The notes beneath the pieces were generated by a model. It saw only the letters and a list, made by a program, of their open reading frames with translations, ran no database searches and was not told where the DNA came from. Positions 1-4,359 of a stretch of DNA of 6,413 nt are shown in pieces. The position numbers and the translations under genes are program-made. Positions within the stretch are counted from its first letter, which is position 1. Each line of letters opens with the position of its first letter. This DNA comes from Alphaproteobacteria bacterium (GTDB lineage Bacteria; Pseudomonadota; Alphaproteobacteria; UBA3830), in the NCBI GenBank assembly GCA_025998595.1, contig BNWE01000077.1, forward strand, positions 1 to 6,413, read 5' to 3'.

Positions 1-535
1 TATCTGTCCTATGTTGCGGTAACTCCAAATTTGTAAAACTTCTTTTTAGTGCGTCGAAAGCTGCATTAAATTTTCCCGCATTATAGTTGAACTCGCGGCT
101 GCGTATTTTTTCTCGCACAGAAAACGCCAAATCACAAGCTGCAACTGCAGATATAGAATTAGTAACTTTCAACACTTTTTCCACTTGCACATCGTCTCTT
201 TCAAACTGATATATGTCCTTTGCCGCCTTAGCTGAGTTGTCCAGATAATCGACGAGCGCGTTAAACTCTTCCTTTCCGGACGTACCAAATAGCGAGACTG
301 AATTAAATTTTTTCTTTGCATCACTTAGATACGCATCTCGCAATGTCTTGGCGAGCTTTTTAAGATTCTTCAATGAACTTTCCAATTTCTTGAAAGATTT
401 CTTAGGATTATCCCATGACTCCTCAAAAACTCCCATCATTGCATTATTATTACGAGAGAATACCCATGCGTCCGAACTATCCATGCTGTACAATAACATC
501 ATTGCAACCGCACACTCTATTACTAATTTTTTCAT
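1..535 (-). CDS. Predicted secreted protein, paralog of the upstream gene; C-terminus beyond the window edge
   Basis: The frame is open from an ATG at 535 to the left edge of the window, giving 178 residues with the C-terminus missing. I do not recognise the family. The start is supported by AGAGGAGG placed 4 nt before the ATG. Residues 1-23 look like a signal peptide: MKK, a short hydrophobic stretch (AVAMMLLY) and a possible cleavage site after SDA23, although Glu7 is unusual in such a position. The rest is mostly helical-looking and charged. It is clearly homologous to the gene at 580-1647: SFKKLESSLKNLKKLA (47-62) matches SFKELETSLKDIKKLA, and GTSGKEEF (84-91), YLDN (97-100), AVAA (130-133) and LELPQ (170-174) all have counterparts. 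From residue 47 to about 133 the two align without gaps at a constant offset of 86 residues, because this copy lacks the glycine-rich segment of its neighbour. It follows that gene by 44 bp and has its own copy of the leader. An exported function is inferred only from the signal peptide. Confidence 0.8.
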   Translation of the reverse strand, partial: MKKLVIECAVAMMLLYSMDSSDAWVFSRNNNAMMGVFEESWDNPKKSFKKLESSLKNLKKLAKTLRDAYLSDAKKKFNSVSLFGTSGKEEFNALVDYLDNSAKAAKDIYQFERDDVQVEKVLKVTNSISAVAACDLAFSVREKIRSREFNYNAGKFNAAFDALKRSFTNLELPQHRTD

Positions 536-584
536 TTTTCCTCCTCTGGCTAACACTACTTGATTATGACAACAAAACGTTAAT
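536..584 (-). promoter_or_regulatory. Duplicated leader of the downstream paralog: -10-like box and Shine-Dalgarno
   Basis: This stretch matches the leader at 1648-1698 over roughly 47 positions with only a handful of differences and short gaps. On the minus strand it reads TTAACGTTTTGTTGTCATAAT, then a short spacer, then AGAGGAGG and AAAA before the ATG. CATAAT (563-568) occupies the place of TATAAT in the sister copy. No good -35 hexamer is visible 16-18 nt upstream. The block overlaps the TAA stop of the preceding gene (580-582), so the leader was probably carried along when the gene was duplicated. Conservation between the copies is seen directly; promoter function is inferred. Confidence 0.45.
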
Positions 585-1647
585 GTATTTCCGTTTCATT
601 TAATTGGTTTAATTCCTCTGCTTGCTTGTTATATGCATCATGTAGACTCTTTAGATAAGCTTCTTTTTGAGCCGCTGTGGGATCACCATTTCGCTTGGCG
701 AGCGCTGCGTCTGCTTCTGCATTTGCTATTTCTATCTTCTTGACAGTCACATTATGAATATCGGCGACGTAACTTTTTAGCAAACCAAGTCCATCGACAA
801 ACGCCAGGAAATACATAATTGTCGGTTGCTTCTGCTGTTGACTACTAATTTGCGGTAAATCTAGCATGCCCAATCTTTCTTCCAGTGCTGTCAAAGCCTT
901 CAAAAATTCCATACAAGCACCTGGATCCGTTTTAAATGCAGAATCTCCATGGTCTAATAAGAGATTCCGCAAAAAAACGGCACAATTATAAGCAGCTACT
1001 GCTGGTGTAAAGTCAATTGTTTTTAGCGTTTTTTTCACCCATGCATCAGAGCCTTTGAATCGATTCATGCTACGTGTCACATCAACTGCATTGTCTAGAT
1101 AAGCAATAAATGATTTAAACTCTCCTTTTCCAGATGTTCCATATGTAGAGAAGACGATATCAGAAGACTTTGTGACATTTTTATATGCCGTTTGTAACTT
1201 CTGAGCAAGCTTTTTGATATCTTTCAGTGAAGTTTCCAATTCTTTGAACGAGGTCTGAGAATTACTCTGTGGAACACTCCCAAATGACCGTGTTTTAACC
1301 TTTTCGGATTTTGTTAAAAAGTATCTTTTAAGAAAACTACCTCCTACGCCGATTCCCGTTCCAATAGCGGTTCCTATAGCCGCTCCTATACTTATTCCTA
1401 TAGGTCCACCAGCCATTCCAACAAAACATCCAACCAGAAATCCAAGCACAGATAGGCCAATACCAGCCTCTATAGTGGCTCCCGCAAACGACGTCTCTAC
1501 TGTATAAGAGGTCTTATGGTGCTTTGACCCCACCGAACGAGTCGCGTACCACGCACCATTTATGTAGTCAGCAAAAAGCGCTTCCGAATTATCTACGCTG
1601 CACAATAACATTATTGTGGCGACAGATCTTATTGCTAATTTTCTCAT
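580..1647 (-). CDS. Predicted secreted or membrane protein with a glycine-zipper segment; unrecognised family
   Basis: This 355-residue protein matches no family I know. The ATG at 1647 follows GAGGAG after a run of A. Residues 1-23 resemble a signal peptide (MRKLAIR, then VATIMLLC, possible cleavage after SEA23). Residues 60-106 are hydrophobic and glycine-rich, with glycines every four residues: G69, G73, G77, G81, then G84, G88, G92, G96, G100. This GxxxG periodicity is the signature of glycine zippers, which pack helices closely in membranes and occur in some outer-envelope proteins and pore-forming proteins. A basic stretch (KRYFLTKSEKVKTR, 107-120) follows. Residues 133-266 form the region shared with the downstream paralog (SFKELETSLKDIKKLA, GTSGKGEF, YLDN, AVAA, LDLPQ). 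The tail (about 300-350) is charged and helical, possibly coiled coil (KKIEIANAEADAALAKR, then EAYLKSLHDAYNKQAEELNQL). It lies 98 bp below ribF with its own leader, so it is probably transcribed separately. An envelope or effector-type role is speculation. Confidence 0.82.
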   Translation of the reverse strand: MRKLAIRSVATIMLLCSVDNSEALFADYINGAWYATRSVGSKHHKTSYTVETSFAGATIEAGIGLSVLGFLVGCFVGMAGGPIGISIGAAIGTAIGTGIGVGGSFLKRYFLTKSEKVKTRSFGSVPQSNSQTSFKELETSLKDIKKLAQKLQTAYKNVTKSSDIVFSTYGTSGKGEFKSFIAYLDNAVDVTRSMNRFKGSDAWVKKTLKTIDFTPAVAAYNCAVFLRNLLLDHGDSAFKTDPGACMEFLKALTALEERLGMLDLPQISSQQQKQPTIMYFLAFVDGLGLLKSYVADIHNVTVKKIEIANAEADAALAKRNGDPTAAQKEAYLKSLHDAYNKQAEELNQLNETEIH

Positions 1648-1698: not shown

Positions 1699-1715
1699 AT
1701 ACTGTATAGAAGCTA

Positions 1716-1731
1716 GTAGCAAAGCAGAAAA
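1716..1731. repeat. 16-bp relic of the in-gene repeat core, opposite orientation
   Basis: GTAGCAAAGCAGAAAA on the plus strand is an exact reverse-complement match to part of the repeat core in ribF (2041-2056) and rsmE (2577-2592). It lies in the non-coding gap between ribF and the secreted-protein gene and is inverted relative to the in-gene copies. A 16-base exact match to a given 50-base sequence is unlikely by chance in a window this size, but the flanks do not extend the match convincingly, so it is at most a decayed fragment. Confidence 0.45.
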
Positions 1732-1745
1732 TGTTTATGATGCAA

Positions 1746-2318
1746 TTACTGGATGGATTCGATATCTCTATTGATTTGTTCTTTGAGTTCGTCAAGAGAG
1801 GCAAACGATAGTTCGTCTCTAATTTTTTTTACAAATCGAACTTCGATCTCTTCTCCGTAAATATCAGAACAAAAACCATCCAATATGTGGACTTCGGCAA
1901 TTGGCTCTTTAATCTCTCGCTTTATTGAGGGCCTTATCCCAAAATTTACAATGCTTCTGTATATCTTTTGAGTACTACAGATTTTCGTTTCTGCCTGATA
2001 AACTCCGAAAGATGCTTGCACAGTCCGAGCCGGATGGGCGTTTTCTGCTTTGCTACCTGTTGCAGGGTATGCGTGATGTGCTTGCAATGTTGAAGCTGAA
2101 TCTAAAGTAAACGCAGGTGCTGCATTGGATCCAACGTCACATGGAGCGAATATAGTCGTTTCAGCAAGTGGTCTAATATTTGCTGTCTTAAATCCAATTT
2201 TTTGACCAAGTTTGTTCCCGCCAACTACTGTTCCTTTTATTAAAAATTGCCGACTGATAAGTCCATCTTTTCCTTCAATTATTTTAGATTTAATTTCTTT
2301 CACCTCTAACCATTCCAT
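1746..2318 (-). CDS. ribF: Riboflavin kinase domain of RibF, lacking the FAD synthetase domain, with an in-frame repeat insertion
   Basis: Riboflavin kinase phosphorylates riboflavin to FMN in the cytoplasm. Bacterial RibF is normally a bifunctional protein of about 300 residues with an N-terminal FMN adenylyltransferase domain; this one has 190 residues and only the C-terminal kinase domain. Visible kinase motifs are GTVVGGNKLGQKIGF (29-43), KTAN (44-47, the family PTAN motif with Pro replaced by Lys but the metal/nucleotide-binding Thr45 and Asn47 kept), GVYQAE (105-110), VNFGIRPS (124-131), and AEVHILD with likely catalytic Glu142, followed by DIYGEEIEVRFVKKIRDE. The first 20 residues (KEIKSKIIEGKDGLISRQF) look like the linker that normally follows the adenylyltransferase domain, so the gene begins mid-family. 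The ATG overlaps the end of rsmE by 13 nt and has GGAG 6 nt upstream, which argues that the short form is translated. Residues about 60-103 are a repeat-derived insertion between two conserved segments. FAD synthesis would need another enzyme or host supply. Family assignment is firm; activity is inferred. Confidence 0.88.
   Translation of the reverse strand: MEWLEVKEIKSKIIEGKDGLISRQFLIKGTVVGGNKLGQKIGFKTANIRPLAETTIFAPCDVGSNAAPAFTLDSASTLQAHHAYPATGSKAENAHPARTVQASFGVYQAETKICSTQKIYRSIVNFGIRPSIKREIKEPIAEVHILDGFCSDIYGEEIEVRFVKKIRDELSFASLDELKEQINRDIESIQ
2013..2140 (-). repeat. Modular in-frame repeat element, copy in ribF
   Basis: On the plus strand the copy starts at TGCTTGCA (2013-2020). It contains a 50-bp core (2036-2085) 48/50 identical to the rsmE copy, then ATGTTGAAGCTGAATC (2087-2102), and ends with GGATCCAACGTCAC (2127-2140). 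Inside the core, GCTACC and GGTATGC can pair as a six-base-pair stem with one bulged T and an eight-base loop. Read on the ribF strand it encodes a polar Ala-rich peptide including LDSAST, QAHHAY and TGSKAENA. It falls between FAP (57-59) and FGVY (104-107), segments that lie close together in ordinary RibF proteins, so it is an insertion into a surface loop rather than part of the enzyme. Confidence 0.85.
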
Positions 2319-3196
2319 AAAATACTCCAGAGAGCGATGGCCGTTATCGCAGCAGTCTCGCTTCTGAGAATGTTTTTGCCCATTGTCACTTTTTTCACGA
2401 AATTGTAACTATCCATCATTTTCATTTCTTCTGCTGAAAAACCACCTTCAGGTCCTATCAGAAAAGCAACGTTTTCATCAAGAGCGTCTTTTATTGGAAT
2501 ACCAGACATTGTCTCATCTCCCACCACCAGTGCTTGCAGCACACGCGTTTCTGCTTCGGCATCTGCGACACGGGCGTTTTCTGCTTTGCTACCTGTTGCG
2601 TGGTATGCGTGATGTGCTTGCGAATGCGAAGTCGAAGTTGTCTCTACAAAAGAAAATGCATTGTATGCCTGCGCTATTTTCGATGTTGAAGCTGAATCAA
2701 GATTAGTAAATGGATCCAACGTCACGTTGGCAAGTCGGCTTAGGAAAGTGCTCAGCTCCACGGGATCGTGTATTTTCGGTACGGTCATGCGTCGCGATTG
2801 CTCAGCAGCTCCAATGACTATGCTTTTTGCTTTTTCGATATTTAATCTTTTGTGTTGGGTGTATCGGGAGATTACGGGAACTATTTCGGAGACTCCTAAC
2901 TCGGTGGTTTTCTCCAGTAGTATAGACATTCTCGCTGGATTTATCAGAGATATCGCAAGTATGGGACCTCTTTCCTCAATTTGCTCCCGGAGTATGTTTA
3001 GACATCGAATGCGCCGCTTTTTTACATCGATGATTTCGCAATTCCATTCTCCGGAATATCCATTGAAGAGAATTAGCGAATCGTTTTTCCCGAGTCTGAG
3101 AACATTGGAGGCGTGATGCATCTGATGATCCGCAAGCATCACTTCCGTTTCTTCAGATAGTTGATGTTCAACAAAAAATCTTGCCGTATGCTTCAT
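2306..3196 (-). CDS. rsmE: 16S rRNA (uracil1498-N3)-methyltransferase RsmE, with an in-frame repeat insertion
   Basis: RsmE is a SPOUT-class enzyme that uses S-adenosylmethionine to methylate N3 of U1498 in the decoding region of 16S rRNA, acting on the small subunit as a dimer. The N-terminal PUA-like part shows ARFFVEH (5-11) and HHASNVLRLGKND (27-39). The SPOUT part shows SLINPARMSILLEKTTELGV (83-102), IVPVISRYTQ (105-114), AAEQSRR (130-136), then the knot motifs LIGPEGGFSAEE (246-257) and MGKNILRSETAAITAI (272-287), which form the cofactor site. At 296 residues it is about 50-60 longer than usual. The excess is residues about 158-222, a repeat-derived insertion between KIHDPVELSTFLSRLAN and VVGDETMSG. 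All catalytic motifs are intact and the frame is unbroken, so the enzyme is probably functional. The start is supported by AAGG 5 nt before the ATG, inside the end of the SPOR gene 2 nt away; the 3' end overlaps ribF. Confidence 0.93.
   Translation of the reverse strand: MKHTARFFVEHQLSEETEVMLADHQMHHASNVLRLGKNDSLILFNGYSGEWNCEIIDVKKRRIRCLNILREQIEERGPILAISLINPARMSILLEKTTELGVSEIVPVISRYTQHKRLNIEKAKSIVIGAAEQSRRMTVPKIHDPVELSTFLSRLANVTLDPFTNLDSASTSKIAQAYNAFSFVETTSTSHSQAHHAYHATGSKAENARVADAEAETRVLQALVVGDETMSGIPIKDALDENVAFLIGPEGGFSAEEMKMMDSYNFVKKVTMGKNILRSETAAITAIALWSILWNG
2531..2725 (-). repeat. Modular in-frame repeat element, longer copy in rsmE
   Basis: The copy begins with TGCTTGCA (2531-2538), carries the 50-bp core (2572-2621) and ATGTTGAAGCTGAATC (2683-2698), and ends with GGATCCAACGTCAC (2712-2725), the same modules in the same order as in ribF. 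It is longer because about 60 bp (2622-2682) separate the core from the 16-bp block, and because the left part holds an extra segment with a partial echo of the core (GCGTTTCTGCTT at 2545-2556 beside GCGTTTTCTGCTTT in the core). The encoded insert includes LDSAST, QAHHAY and TGSKAENA in the same frame as in ribF. The right-end module, however, is read in a different frame in the two genes (VTLDP here, CDVGS in ribF), so the peptide there is not what is conserved. Confidence 0.85.
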
Positions 3197-3198
3197 AG

Positions 3199-4359
3199 CT
3201 ACCTTGATATGTAGGCGTTAACGCCGCCGTTTTTCATGGAGCGTATGAATTTATTGGCTTCGGTATCGTTCCGAAACGGACCAATCATTACCCGATAGCG
3301 TATGCCTTTTTTGCGTCCCAGATCGACCTTAACGATATTCTTATCGACATTGCGAAGAGCTCTATTATTGGGAAGTAGCCTTTTGTACTCGACTTCAGCT
3401 GCTGATTTTGTTGCCAAAGATGCTATCTGCACCATAACGCCACCATTCCTTTTGGCAGAAGCAGCAGAAGAGACGGAAGACTGCGAGTCATATTCCGACG
3501 ATTTATTTACAAGCTCTTTCAATTTTGATTTTTTGTTTTTACGATGTGACTCACGATCTAATCTCTTTATTGGTGGCTCATAATCGTCATCTTCGGAATA
3601 CTTCTCTCTTGCTTTTTTGCGGAGCGTTTTTTTAGCTGGAGTGCTTATTTCGACAATGTTAGAGGTTTTTTTTATGTTTCTGGCTTTGGGAACATTGGTA
3701 GCCAAAGAATCATCATCTTCGAATACAACCAATCCCTTTGATTCAATGCGATGTTCTTTGGAACTGCTCGTAGAGTTCTTGGATTTTTTTTTGGAACTAC
3801 TCTTTGAGTGATCTCCAGTTGTAGTAGACGATTTATCTATTGTCGATGTTGAGCCTTTTTTTGCTCCACTTTTTACGTAGTTGATTTTATATTCTTTCTC
3901 CGGAGCCAACTCATCAAAAGCTTGTATTATATTCTTTTTTTCTTCGTCCGATAGTGAAGAGTCCATGTCCGTTCCATTTATGGACAGTACTTCCTCCGGT
4001 TGCGGAATGGTCTTGACAGCTACCGCTGCGGTTTTTTCGCCGGATATGTTATCGTAGACTATCTTATCCTGATGACCGATGCCTTCGTTCGGCTGCGGCT
4101 TGATTTTTACTGGTGTTGCATTTGCTCTTATGACCGGCAGCTCTTCTAAGCCAATTGATCTGGAGTTCGAATATATGAGGAAGGCCACGACGCCGAAAGC
4201 GGCAACCGAAGCCATACCGCCAAGAACAATGAACTTCCTGTCATTCTGCTGCAGAGACCAGTTTTTTCCGCTACTCTCCTGTGGCAATGGCTGCACAGGA
4301 TCCATCGCATAGTTTTCGTAGTTATCAAAACTGTCTTCTTCGTCTAAAAAAGGACACAT
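3199..4359 (-). CDS. SPOR-domain inner-membrane protein
   Basis: SPOR domains bind denuded glycan strands of septal peptidoglycan, so proteins like this usually localise to the division site. The 386-residue protein has an acidic cytoplasmic N-terminus (1-40), one membrane segment (about 43-62, FIVLGGMASVAAFGVVAFLI), and then a conserved block LPVIRANATPVKIKPQP plus DKIVYDNISGE (74-108) that I recognise from SPOR proteins encoded beside argS in alphaproteobacteria. Next comes a long low-complexity periplasmic linker rich in Ser, Lys, Asp and Glu (about 165-300). The C-terminal SPOR domain (about 306-386) runs from GGVMVQIASLATKSAAEVEY to YRVMIGPFRNDTEANKFIRSMKNGGVNAYIS. The topology is N-in, C-out. 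The ATG shares one base with the argS stop (TAATG), implying translational coupling. In many alphaproteobacteria nagZ and scpA follow this gene; here rsmE and ribF do. Confidence is high for the domain; the exact division role is inferred. Confidence 0.9.
   Translation of the reverse strand: MCPFLDEEDSFDNYENYAMDPVQPLPQESSGKNWSLQQNDRKFIVLGGMASVAAFGVVAFLIYSNSRSIGLEELPVIRANATPVKIKPQPNEGIGHQDKIVYDNISGEKTAAVAVKTIPQPEEVLSINGTDMDSSLSDEEKKNIIQAFDELAPEKEYKINYVKSGAKKGSTSTIDKSSTTTGDHSKSSSKKKSKNSTSSSKEHRIESKGLVVFEDDDSLATNVPKARNIKKTSNIVEISTPAKKTLRKKAREKYSEDDDYEPPIKRLDRESHRKNKKSKLKELVNKSSEYDSQSSVSSAASAKRNGGVMVQIASLATKSAAEVEYKRLLPNNRALRNVDKNIVKVDLGRKKGIRYRVMIGPFRNDTEANKFIRSMKNGGVNAYISR

What the first reader, a model, noticed from the sequence alone, without database searches (positions are those of the whole stretch)
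2013..2725. Same modular repeat inserted in frame into two adjacent housekeeping genes
Seen directly: ribF and rsmE each carry an insertion built from the same modules in the same order (TGCTTGCA edge, 50-bp core at 48/50 identity, a 16-bp block, a 14-bp right end). Both keep the reading frame and leave all enzyme motifs intact. Known: Rickettsia palindromic elements do this in Rickettsia genes. I do not recognise this sequence as one of those families. Inference: a small, non-autonomous element that can be tolerated as a peptide inside essential proteins and may be dispersed genome-wide.
Basis: partly seen in the sequence, partly recalled or inferred. Interest (0 to 1): 0.8.

Follow-up and report, generated by a model that had tools for sequence, protein, structure and literature searches.

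The report
Hairpin-ended repeats inside housekeeping proteins
A roughly 118-base mobile-looking repeat with a tiny hairpin at each end sits in frame inside two neighbouring enzyme genes here, and a close relative carries about a hundred copies, many of them in frame inside basic housekeeping genes.

Summary
The repeat is real (48/50 core) and not a local event. A profile built only from a sister genome (G001, Alphaproteobacteria bacterium PG1894_49; RsmE about 82% identical) hits both window insertions (E 2.8e-20 and 2.5e-15). G001 has 91 model hits, a lower bound although a few overlap; 102 non-redundant profile hits lie in the 224 kb fetched. The unit is about 118 bp: a conserved body between two short hairpins with mostly fixed three-base loops (TGA, GCA) and covarying stems; either hairpin type can occupy either end. 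The consensus has one open frame per strand. Of 50 G001 sites with same-strand open frames on both sides, 36 keep the frame (p about 3e-8 against 1/3); 31 read open through, in genes such as mutS, ligA, polA, leuS, truB, tilS. The rsmE insertion is composite. AlphaFold leaves it as a low-confidence excursion from a confident fold. It works like Rickettsia palindromic elements but lacks their long stem and terminal inverted repeats. No relative was found outside its order in the samples searched. The mobiliser is unknown, and the window's own genome is not held.

The parts
1746..2318 (-). host gene 1: riboflavin kinase (kinase half of RibF only), with about 45 extra residues between the TAN and GVY motifs
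   Evidence: PF01687 E 4.9e-30; alignment with P0122-P0126
2012..2144 (+). element copy in ribF (orientation of the profile; the gene is read on the opposite strand)
   Evidence: nhmmer profile from G001 copies only, env 2012-2137, E 5.7e-22; seed profile E 2.8e-20
2022..2035 (+). left-end hairpin of the ribF copy, type B variant GTCCG-AGC-CGGAT (outer pair imperfect)
   Evidence: sequence; a perfect form AGTCCGAGCCGGACT is an end of G001 copy C3_5600; weak DNA fold, -2.4 kcal/mol, 16 of 200 shuffles as good
2117..2144 (+). right end of the ribF copy: half of a type B hairpin (GTGCTGCA, 2117-2124) followed by a damaged type A hairpin (2131-2144)
   Evidence: sequence compared; profile alignment to 2124
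2306..3196 (-). host gene 2: rsmE (RNA methyltransferase) with 62 extra residues
   Evidence: PF04452, PF20260; 296 versus 234 residues in P0002; 211 nt versus 25 nt in G001 at DNA level
2530..2730 (+). composite insertion in rsmE: outer element 2530-2559 plus 2657-2730
   Evidence: profile hits 2529-2566 (-), 2658-2716 (+), 2705-2731 (-); split points inferred from the sequence
2530..2542 (+). outer left-end hairpin, type B: GTGCT-TGC-AGCAC
   Evidence: sequence; DNA fold -4.0 kcal/mol, 29 of 200 shuffles as good
2560..2656 (+). inner element nested in the outer one; its right hairpin is missing
   Evidence: profile positions 20-99 at 2575-2660, E 2.2e-16; the exact inner limits are inferred from the sequence
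2716..2730 (+). outer right-end hairpin, type A: CCAACG-TCA-CGTTGG
   Evidence: sequence; DNA fold -5.2 kcal/mol, 0 of 200 shuffles as good
1709..1733 (-). possible decayed remnant of a third copy, 3' of ribF
   Evidence: 16 exact bases (I5/I6); profile E 0.043 only

Best explanation
A lineage-specific family of short, non-autonomous, dispersed elements (about 118 bp) in Holosporaceae-type alphaproteobacteria. Shown: high copy number in the sister genome, hairpins at both ends whose stems covary, one open frame on each strand of the consensus, orthologs with and without a copy, nesting, and frame keeping inside genes. Inferred: copies move as DNA, probably through a single-stranded stage in which the end hairpins are recognised by shape and loop more than by stem sequence, by an activity supplied in trans (this step alone about 0.35). 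A copy that lands in a gene survives mostly if its open frame matches the gene and the peptide of about 40 residues falls in a surface loop; it is then translated and tolerated as neutral baggage. Copies that break genes are lost or leave pseudogenes.
For: Dispersal: 91 of 91 scored candidates matched in G001 (850 candidates). Same family as the window. Frame: 36 of 50 same-strand sites keep the frame, p 2.6e-8 against 1/3; 27 of 31 open-through sites use the same two of six frames, and the consensus has one open frame per strand. Hosts: 25 of 29 ORFs have Pfam domains, and the domain match runs across the element in 8. Sites without a copy: MutS and formate-THF ligase orthologs in G005, a paralogous repeat in G001, RsmE in G001. 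Hairpins: 21 double-changed cells versus 6.7 in shuffles for 17 copies; 37 versus 14.8 for 68 left ends and 41 versus 9.3 for 53 right ends; 42 of 69 left and 31 of 60 right ends have perfect stems of 5 or more, 0 of 102 internal segments do. Fold: ten-residue pLDDT means 87-98 outside the insert of RsmE, 38-62 inside it.
Against: No target duplication above the shuffled control (3.5 versus 3.3 nt, 22 copies). No clear mobiliser: one partial Y1 transposase match in G001, profile positions 50-93 of 121 in an 83-residue open frame, over the Pfam cut-off. Of 18 top places examined in other genomes of the order, 1 was in frame and 3 lay at contig edges, so the coding habit is shown for G001 and the window only. 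Native loop sequence seems lost at compared sites. Compensatory stems could come from palindrome-correcting template switching. Shuffle controls do not remove relatedness among copies, and the ends are those the profile alignment reached. Open frames are also common in random G001 DNA (2.1 of 6 over 96 nt). Translation is inferred; no transcript or protein data were seen.
Confidence: 0.75

Rival explanations
1. The elements have no transposition machinery; they spread and change ends through replication template switching or gene conversion between short hairpins.
For: No target duplication; no complete Y1 transposase seen in four genomes searched; ends are mosaic (of 22 copies 13 A/B, 2 A/A, 5 B/B, 2 B/A; sorted by eye); native sequence seems partly replaced at sites; stems stay self-complementary, as palindrome correction would make them.
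Against: A whole 118-bp unit recurs at many loci and sites without a copy exist, which local conversion alone does not explain.
Confidence: 0.3
2. It is a true member (homolog) of the Rickettsia or Wolbachia palindromic element families.
For: Same size range, in-frame insertion in conserved genes, host-associated alphaproteobacteria (RPE traits from passages of PMC2229807 and PMC3767692).
Against: Ends of different type in 15 of 22 copies; no long stem-loop (fold z-scores -0.65 to 0.87 for the window copies; the consensus matches its own complement only weakly); one exact-pattern scan of a collection of 84,980 species gave only L001 plus one apparent chance hit; 1 of 385 genomes in a class sample, G001 itself (nine candidates scored per genome).
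Confidence: 0.08
3. The inserted peptides have been recruited for function, or the segments are removed at RNA level or bypassed in translation.
For: Hairpin-flanked units resemble translational bypass segments (recalled, not searched); 5 of 94 sites keep the frame but contain a stop, and 14 have open frames on one strand that do not match.
Against: Frame and openness are kept, which removal or bypass would not need; at least some different-frame sites read by eye as gene boundaries, for example one that looks like atpD-atpC; the insert of P0003 at the same rsmE site is very different.
Confidence: 0.06
4. A single local gene conversion between ribF and rsmE, or native loops of these proteins.
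For: The two copies are adjacent and 48/50 identical in the core.
Against: About a hundred related copies in a sister genome; orthologs lack the segments. A recent exchange between these two copies remains possible within the family.
Confidence: 0.01

Closest known systems
Rickettsia palindromic elements (RPE) and Wolbachia palindromic elements (WPE)
   Same: RPE: 100-150 bp, dispersed, in frame inside conserved genes, in solvent-exposed areas, host-associated alphaproteobacteria (passages); WPE-like inserts in frame in Wolbachia genes (passage)
   Different: RPE are described as long stem-loops with terminal inverted repeats of 12 bp (PMC2229807); here two separate mini-hairpins of two interchangeable types, no long stem, one open frame on each strand, no sequence relative found outside the order in the samples searched
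CGTC-tagged REP repeats (include RPE-4 and RPE-6)
   Same: short hairpins, most in alphaproteobacteria, some intragenic, no dedicated transposase known (PMC3733652)
   Different: those have 8-9 bp stems, 4-5 nt loops and an unpaired CGTC tag; here mostly 5-6 bp stems and 3-nt loops, with CGTC lying inside the type A hairpin
MITEs such as Correia, ERIC, RUP
   Same: small, non-autonomous, some give in-frame fusions
   Different: those three have terminal inverted repeats, target duplications and TA ends in the table; none of these was seen here
Non-autonomous IS200/IS605-type elements
   Same: hairpins near both ends, no inverted repeats, no target duplication (recalled)
   Different: stem sequence varies between copies; only a partial Y1 transposase match in G001
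PARCELs
   Same: palindromic coding repeats that spread
   Different: tandem arrays, mostly in membrane proteins (passages of PMC2996958), not single inserts in enzymes

Membership tests
Rickettsia palindromic elements | size about 105-146 bp | tested here: met
   hairpin to hairpin 100-152 bp in 22 copies, 16 of them 105-133
Rickettsia palindromic elements | in-frame insertion in conserved protein genes | tested here: met
   36 of 50 same-strand sites in frame; 25 of 29 host ORFs with Pfam domains; in G001 and the window only
Rickettsia palindromic elements | long stem-loop with terminal inverted repeats | tested here: not met
   fold z-scores near zero; ends of different type in 15 of 22 copies
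Rickettsia palindromic elements | sequence homology to an RPE family | tested here: inconclusive
   curated RPE sequences not on hand; no Rickettsia record in the exact-pattern scan
Wolbachia palindromic elements | sequence homology to WPE | not tested
   reference sequences not on hand; no Wolbachia record in the exact-pattern scan
CGTC-tagged REP | 8-9 bp stem, 4-5 nt loop, unpaired CGTC tag | tested here: not met
   stems mostly 5-6 bp with 3-nt loops (which searched 3-nt loops only; RNAalifold also gave 3-nt loops)
MITE | terminal inverted repeats | tested here: not met
   same hairpin type at both ends in 7 of 22 copies only
MITE | target site duplication | tested here: inconclusive
   flank direct repeats 3.5 versus 3.3 nt in controls; one paralog pair suggestive by eye
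IS200/IS605-type non-autonomous element | hairpins at both ends | tested here: met
IS200/IS605-type non-autonomous element | Y1 transposase in the genome | tested here: inconclusive
   one partial match in G001 (positions 50-93 of 121, over the cut-off) and a weaker one in G006; none in G005 and G008

The most novel reading that the evidence does not exclude
A new class of mobile DNA whose ends are defined by shape: two mini-hairpins with near-fixed three-base loops and covarying stems, interchangeable between ends, around a body kept open on both strands so that insertions in either orientation can be translated. It would be a steady source of new protein segments and gene fusions in these symbionts (in G001 one copy lies between DapF and RNase H domains in one reading frame).
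Probability: 0.3. Interest if true: 0.8.

Novelty: new variant of a known kind. Interest (0 to 1): 0.6.

Why it matters
In-frame palindromic coding repeats are described for Rickettsia, Wolbachia and one archaeon (passage), and some Neisseria and enterobacterial repeats also give in-frame fusions; how the Rickettsia-type elements move is, as far as I know, open. A family of about a hundred copies with covarying end hairpins, interchangeable ends, orthologs with and without a copy, and two usable frames makes the mechanism testable by sequence comparison, and is a natural experiment in how far conserved enzymes tolerate foreign loops.

Tried and rejected
Single-strand folding of the two window copies gave nothing beyond shuffles, so a long palindrome was rejected. 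The one Sulfurimonas hit of the pattern scan looks like chance. No match in plasmids or phages (one G001 copy), viral contigs (exact pattern) or, for the window and L001, Rfam at gathering thresholds. Target duplications: none above control. An all-against-all comparison of the fetched G001 DNA listed seven pairs of 220 nt or more; I saw no obvious autonomous parent in that list but did not study the contents. The idea that the whole body is palindromic was dropped: only a short central match to its own complement. Of the 31 open-through sites, one (C53 3085) lies in what looks like a broken gene and is doubtful. G001 copies outside genes and G005 copies also keep about two open frames against 1.0-1.2 in shuffles, but random 96-mers of that genome score alike (2.1), so this is weak. 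The internal control used 32-nt segments against 30 nt (left) and 40 nt (right). The class-level search (1 of 385) scored nine candidates per genome and is insensitive.

Full report
Check of the observation. The described modules are present at the stated coordinates: the 50-bp cores at 2036-2085 and 2572-2621 share 48 of 50 bases, while twelve shuffles of the two regions reached at most 27. Both lie in frame in minus-strand ORFs, a riboflavin kinase and RsmE. The RibF ORF encodes only the kinase half; the FAD synthetase domain is not hit, although homologs P0122-P0124 list PF06574.

Orthologs. P0002, the closest RsmE (82% identity over the aligned half, 81% in the alignment), has no insert of this length. 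P0003 (71% over 69%), named FACS189472_08090, has a different insert at the same place that reads by eye like one forward and one reverse copy of the family. P0002 is encoded by genome G001, the genome in which L001 lies, titled Alphaproteobacteria bacterium PG1894_49. At DNA level the flanks are 81% and 84% identical, with 211 nt in the window against 25 nt in G001: a gain of 186 nt, or 62 codons. The G001 site carries GTCCGGCTCGGAC, a hairpin of the kind found at element ends (compare AGTCCGAGCCGGACT), so it may be a remnant rather than a virgin site. However, its loop has the same length as in more distant homologs, so this is not settled. RibF gains about 45 residues between the TAN and GVY motifs.

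The family in the sister genome. The window's genome is not held. A single copy from L001 found 51 matches in G001. A covariance model from 17 G001 copies matched all 91 candidates scored there, of 850; a few of these overlap on opposite strands. A profile from 11 G001 copies, with no window sequence, found both window insertions with E 2.8e-20 and 2.5e-15. In the 224 kb of G001 fetched around hits, 102 non-redundant profile hits (score 30 or more) form 94 sites. The 22 copies with perfect hairpins at both ends measure 100-152 bp.

Anatomy. The left consensus end is CCAACG-TGA-CGTTGG (type A), with variants CCAGCG-TGA-CGCTGG and CCAGCT-TGA-AGCTGG; the right one is GTGGT-GCA-ACCAC (type B), with variants GTGCT/AGCAC, GTGCG/CGCAC, GTATC/GATAC and others. 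A few loops differ (TCA, TAA, TGC, GCT). Perfect stems of five or more occur in 42 of 69 left ends and 31 of 60 right ends, and in 0 of 102 internal segments (3-nt loops only). Covariation exceeds shuffles: 21 double-changed cells against 6.7 in 17 copies, 37 against 14.8 in 68 left ends, 41 against 9.3 in 53 right ends (these are the ends reached by the profile alignment, and relatedness is not removed). The TGA loop with other stems recurs in other genomes of the order: CAAACG/CGTTTG, CAAGCG/CGCTTG, GCAACG/CGTTGC. Ends combine: of 22 copies 13 are A/B, 2 A/A, 5 B/B, 2 B/A (sorted by eye). The unit is not a long stem-loop. In the window, rsmE holds a composite: the profile matches positions 20-99 at 2575-2660 and again 43-101 at 2658-2716, so I read one copy as lying inside another.

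Reading frames. The consensus has exactly one open frame on each strand. Of 94 sites, 53 have an open frame of 210 nt in both flanks: 31 same frame and open through, 5 same frame with a stop inside, 14 same strand but different frame, 3 opposite strands. Of the other 41 sites, 31 have one open flank, 4 none and 6 lie at an edge of the fetched DNA. Thus 36 of 50 same-strand sites keep the frame (p 2.6e-8 against one third). At random sites without an element the open-through class makes up 0.526 of all, against 31 of 94 here, so coding regions are avoided to some degree. Some different-frame cases read by eye as gene boundaries. Of the 31, 27 use the same two of six frames. Both window copies use the reverse one (by eye). 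In 18 top places checked in other genomes of the order 1 was in frame, 3 lay at an edge and 14 were not in frame, so the in-frame habit is shown for the G001/window lineage only.

Hosts. The 31 sites fall in 29 ORFs; 25 of 29 have a Pfam domain at E 1e-5 or better. Named by me from the domains, they include MnmA, RecD2, MutS, LigA, Sua5, TruB, Mur ligases, formate-THF ligase, TilS, PolA, Lnt, MurJ, an ABC transporter, LeuRS, a HipA-like protein, a radical SAM protein and a Kdo transferase. In 8 of the 25 a single domain match runs across the element (MutS_III, TruB_N, Mur_ligase_M, FTHFS, ATP_bind_3, MurJ, ABC2_membrane_3, HipA_C). In one ORF an element lies between DapF and RNase H domains, a possible fusion. 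G005 orthologs of MutS and formate-THF ligase lack the element, and one G001 repeat has an empty paralog. Some other G001 sites have extra sequence at the matching place in G005 too, but those G005 stretches were fetched because they hold hits. In the MutS and ligase comparisons the net gain (28 and about 14 residues) is smaller than the element, so native loop sequence seems to have been lost. AlphaFold on 42 sequences gives ten-residue pLDDT means of 87-98 outside the RsmE insert and 38-62 inside it.

Distribution. With the model, 15 of 40 genomes of the family match at E 0.01 or better, 7 of 49 in the order at 1e-4, and 1 of 385 in a class sample, which is G001 (insensitive). Relatives in the family include proteins named Holosporaceae bacterium. 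A termite-gut origin of G001 and P0003 is my guess from their names and was not shown.

Mechanism. Supported: a dispersed non-autonomous element, tolerated in frame. Not shown: how it moves. No target duplication above control, and only a partial Y1 transposase match in G001. The covarying stems with near-constant loops point to recognition of a single-stranded hairpin (my best guess, about 0.35), but template switching that perfects palindromes would leave the same trace (about 0.3).

Known relatives. RPE are 105-146 bp, modelled as long stem-loops with inverted repeats, found in frame in Rickettsia genes (passages of PMC2229807; PMC3767692; PMC10969869). WPE-like in-frame inserts are mentioned in a passage of PMC4224334. 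CGTC repeats are described in passages of PMC3733652. The primary RPE papers were not read (PMC186582 not held). Searches for palindromic coding repeats with Holospora, Holosporales, Wolbachia or endosymbionts (listings only) showed no title or abstract start describing them in this order. A Holosporales review has no occurrence of 'palindrom' in its main text, nor has a Holospora genome paper, whose passages report many repeats without naming such a class. The library holds only open-licence papers, so a description elsewhere is possible.

Noticed in passing
window 2-556 and 580-1647 (-): Two neighbouring ORFs without Pfam match look like paralogous exported proteins: 72 nt at their starts are 76% identical (D2).
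   Followed up: no
window 1746-2318 (-): RibF here is only the riboflavin kinase half. A search with a full-length RibF hit 1 of 40 genomes of the family, the one that encodes the query, so loss or low sensitivity is open.
   Followed up: partly
L022:1175-2761 (G001 C35): An element lies between DapF and RNase H domains in one open reading frame, a possible gene fusion made by the element.
   Followed up: partly
L145 (G001 C92), rsmE loop: A solitary end-type hairpin GTCCGGCTCGGAC followed by CGTCACG at the site where the window has the full insertion.
   Followed up: partly
L012, just right of the element at 1499-1640: A different palindrome-like repeat (CTGGATCCCTACGTCGCGCTACG...GGATGAC) that resembles Rickettsia-type repeats from memory.
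   Followed up: no
L010 (G001 C43:8713-8998): Three element copies in tandem with a period near 84 nt, in one open frame.
   Followed up: no
G035, G032, G037 (L059, L072, L081, L061, L062): Type A-like hairpins, mostly with TGA loop, followed by a quite different T-rich body but with GTATGC or GTTTGC at similar spacing: perhaps a distant sister family.
   Followed up: no
L001 2149-3619 (-): A G001 gene that by eye looks phage- or plasmid-like (no Pfam hit for 2759-3619) seems broken by three element copies.
   Followed up: no
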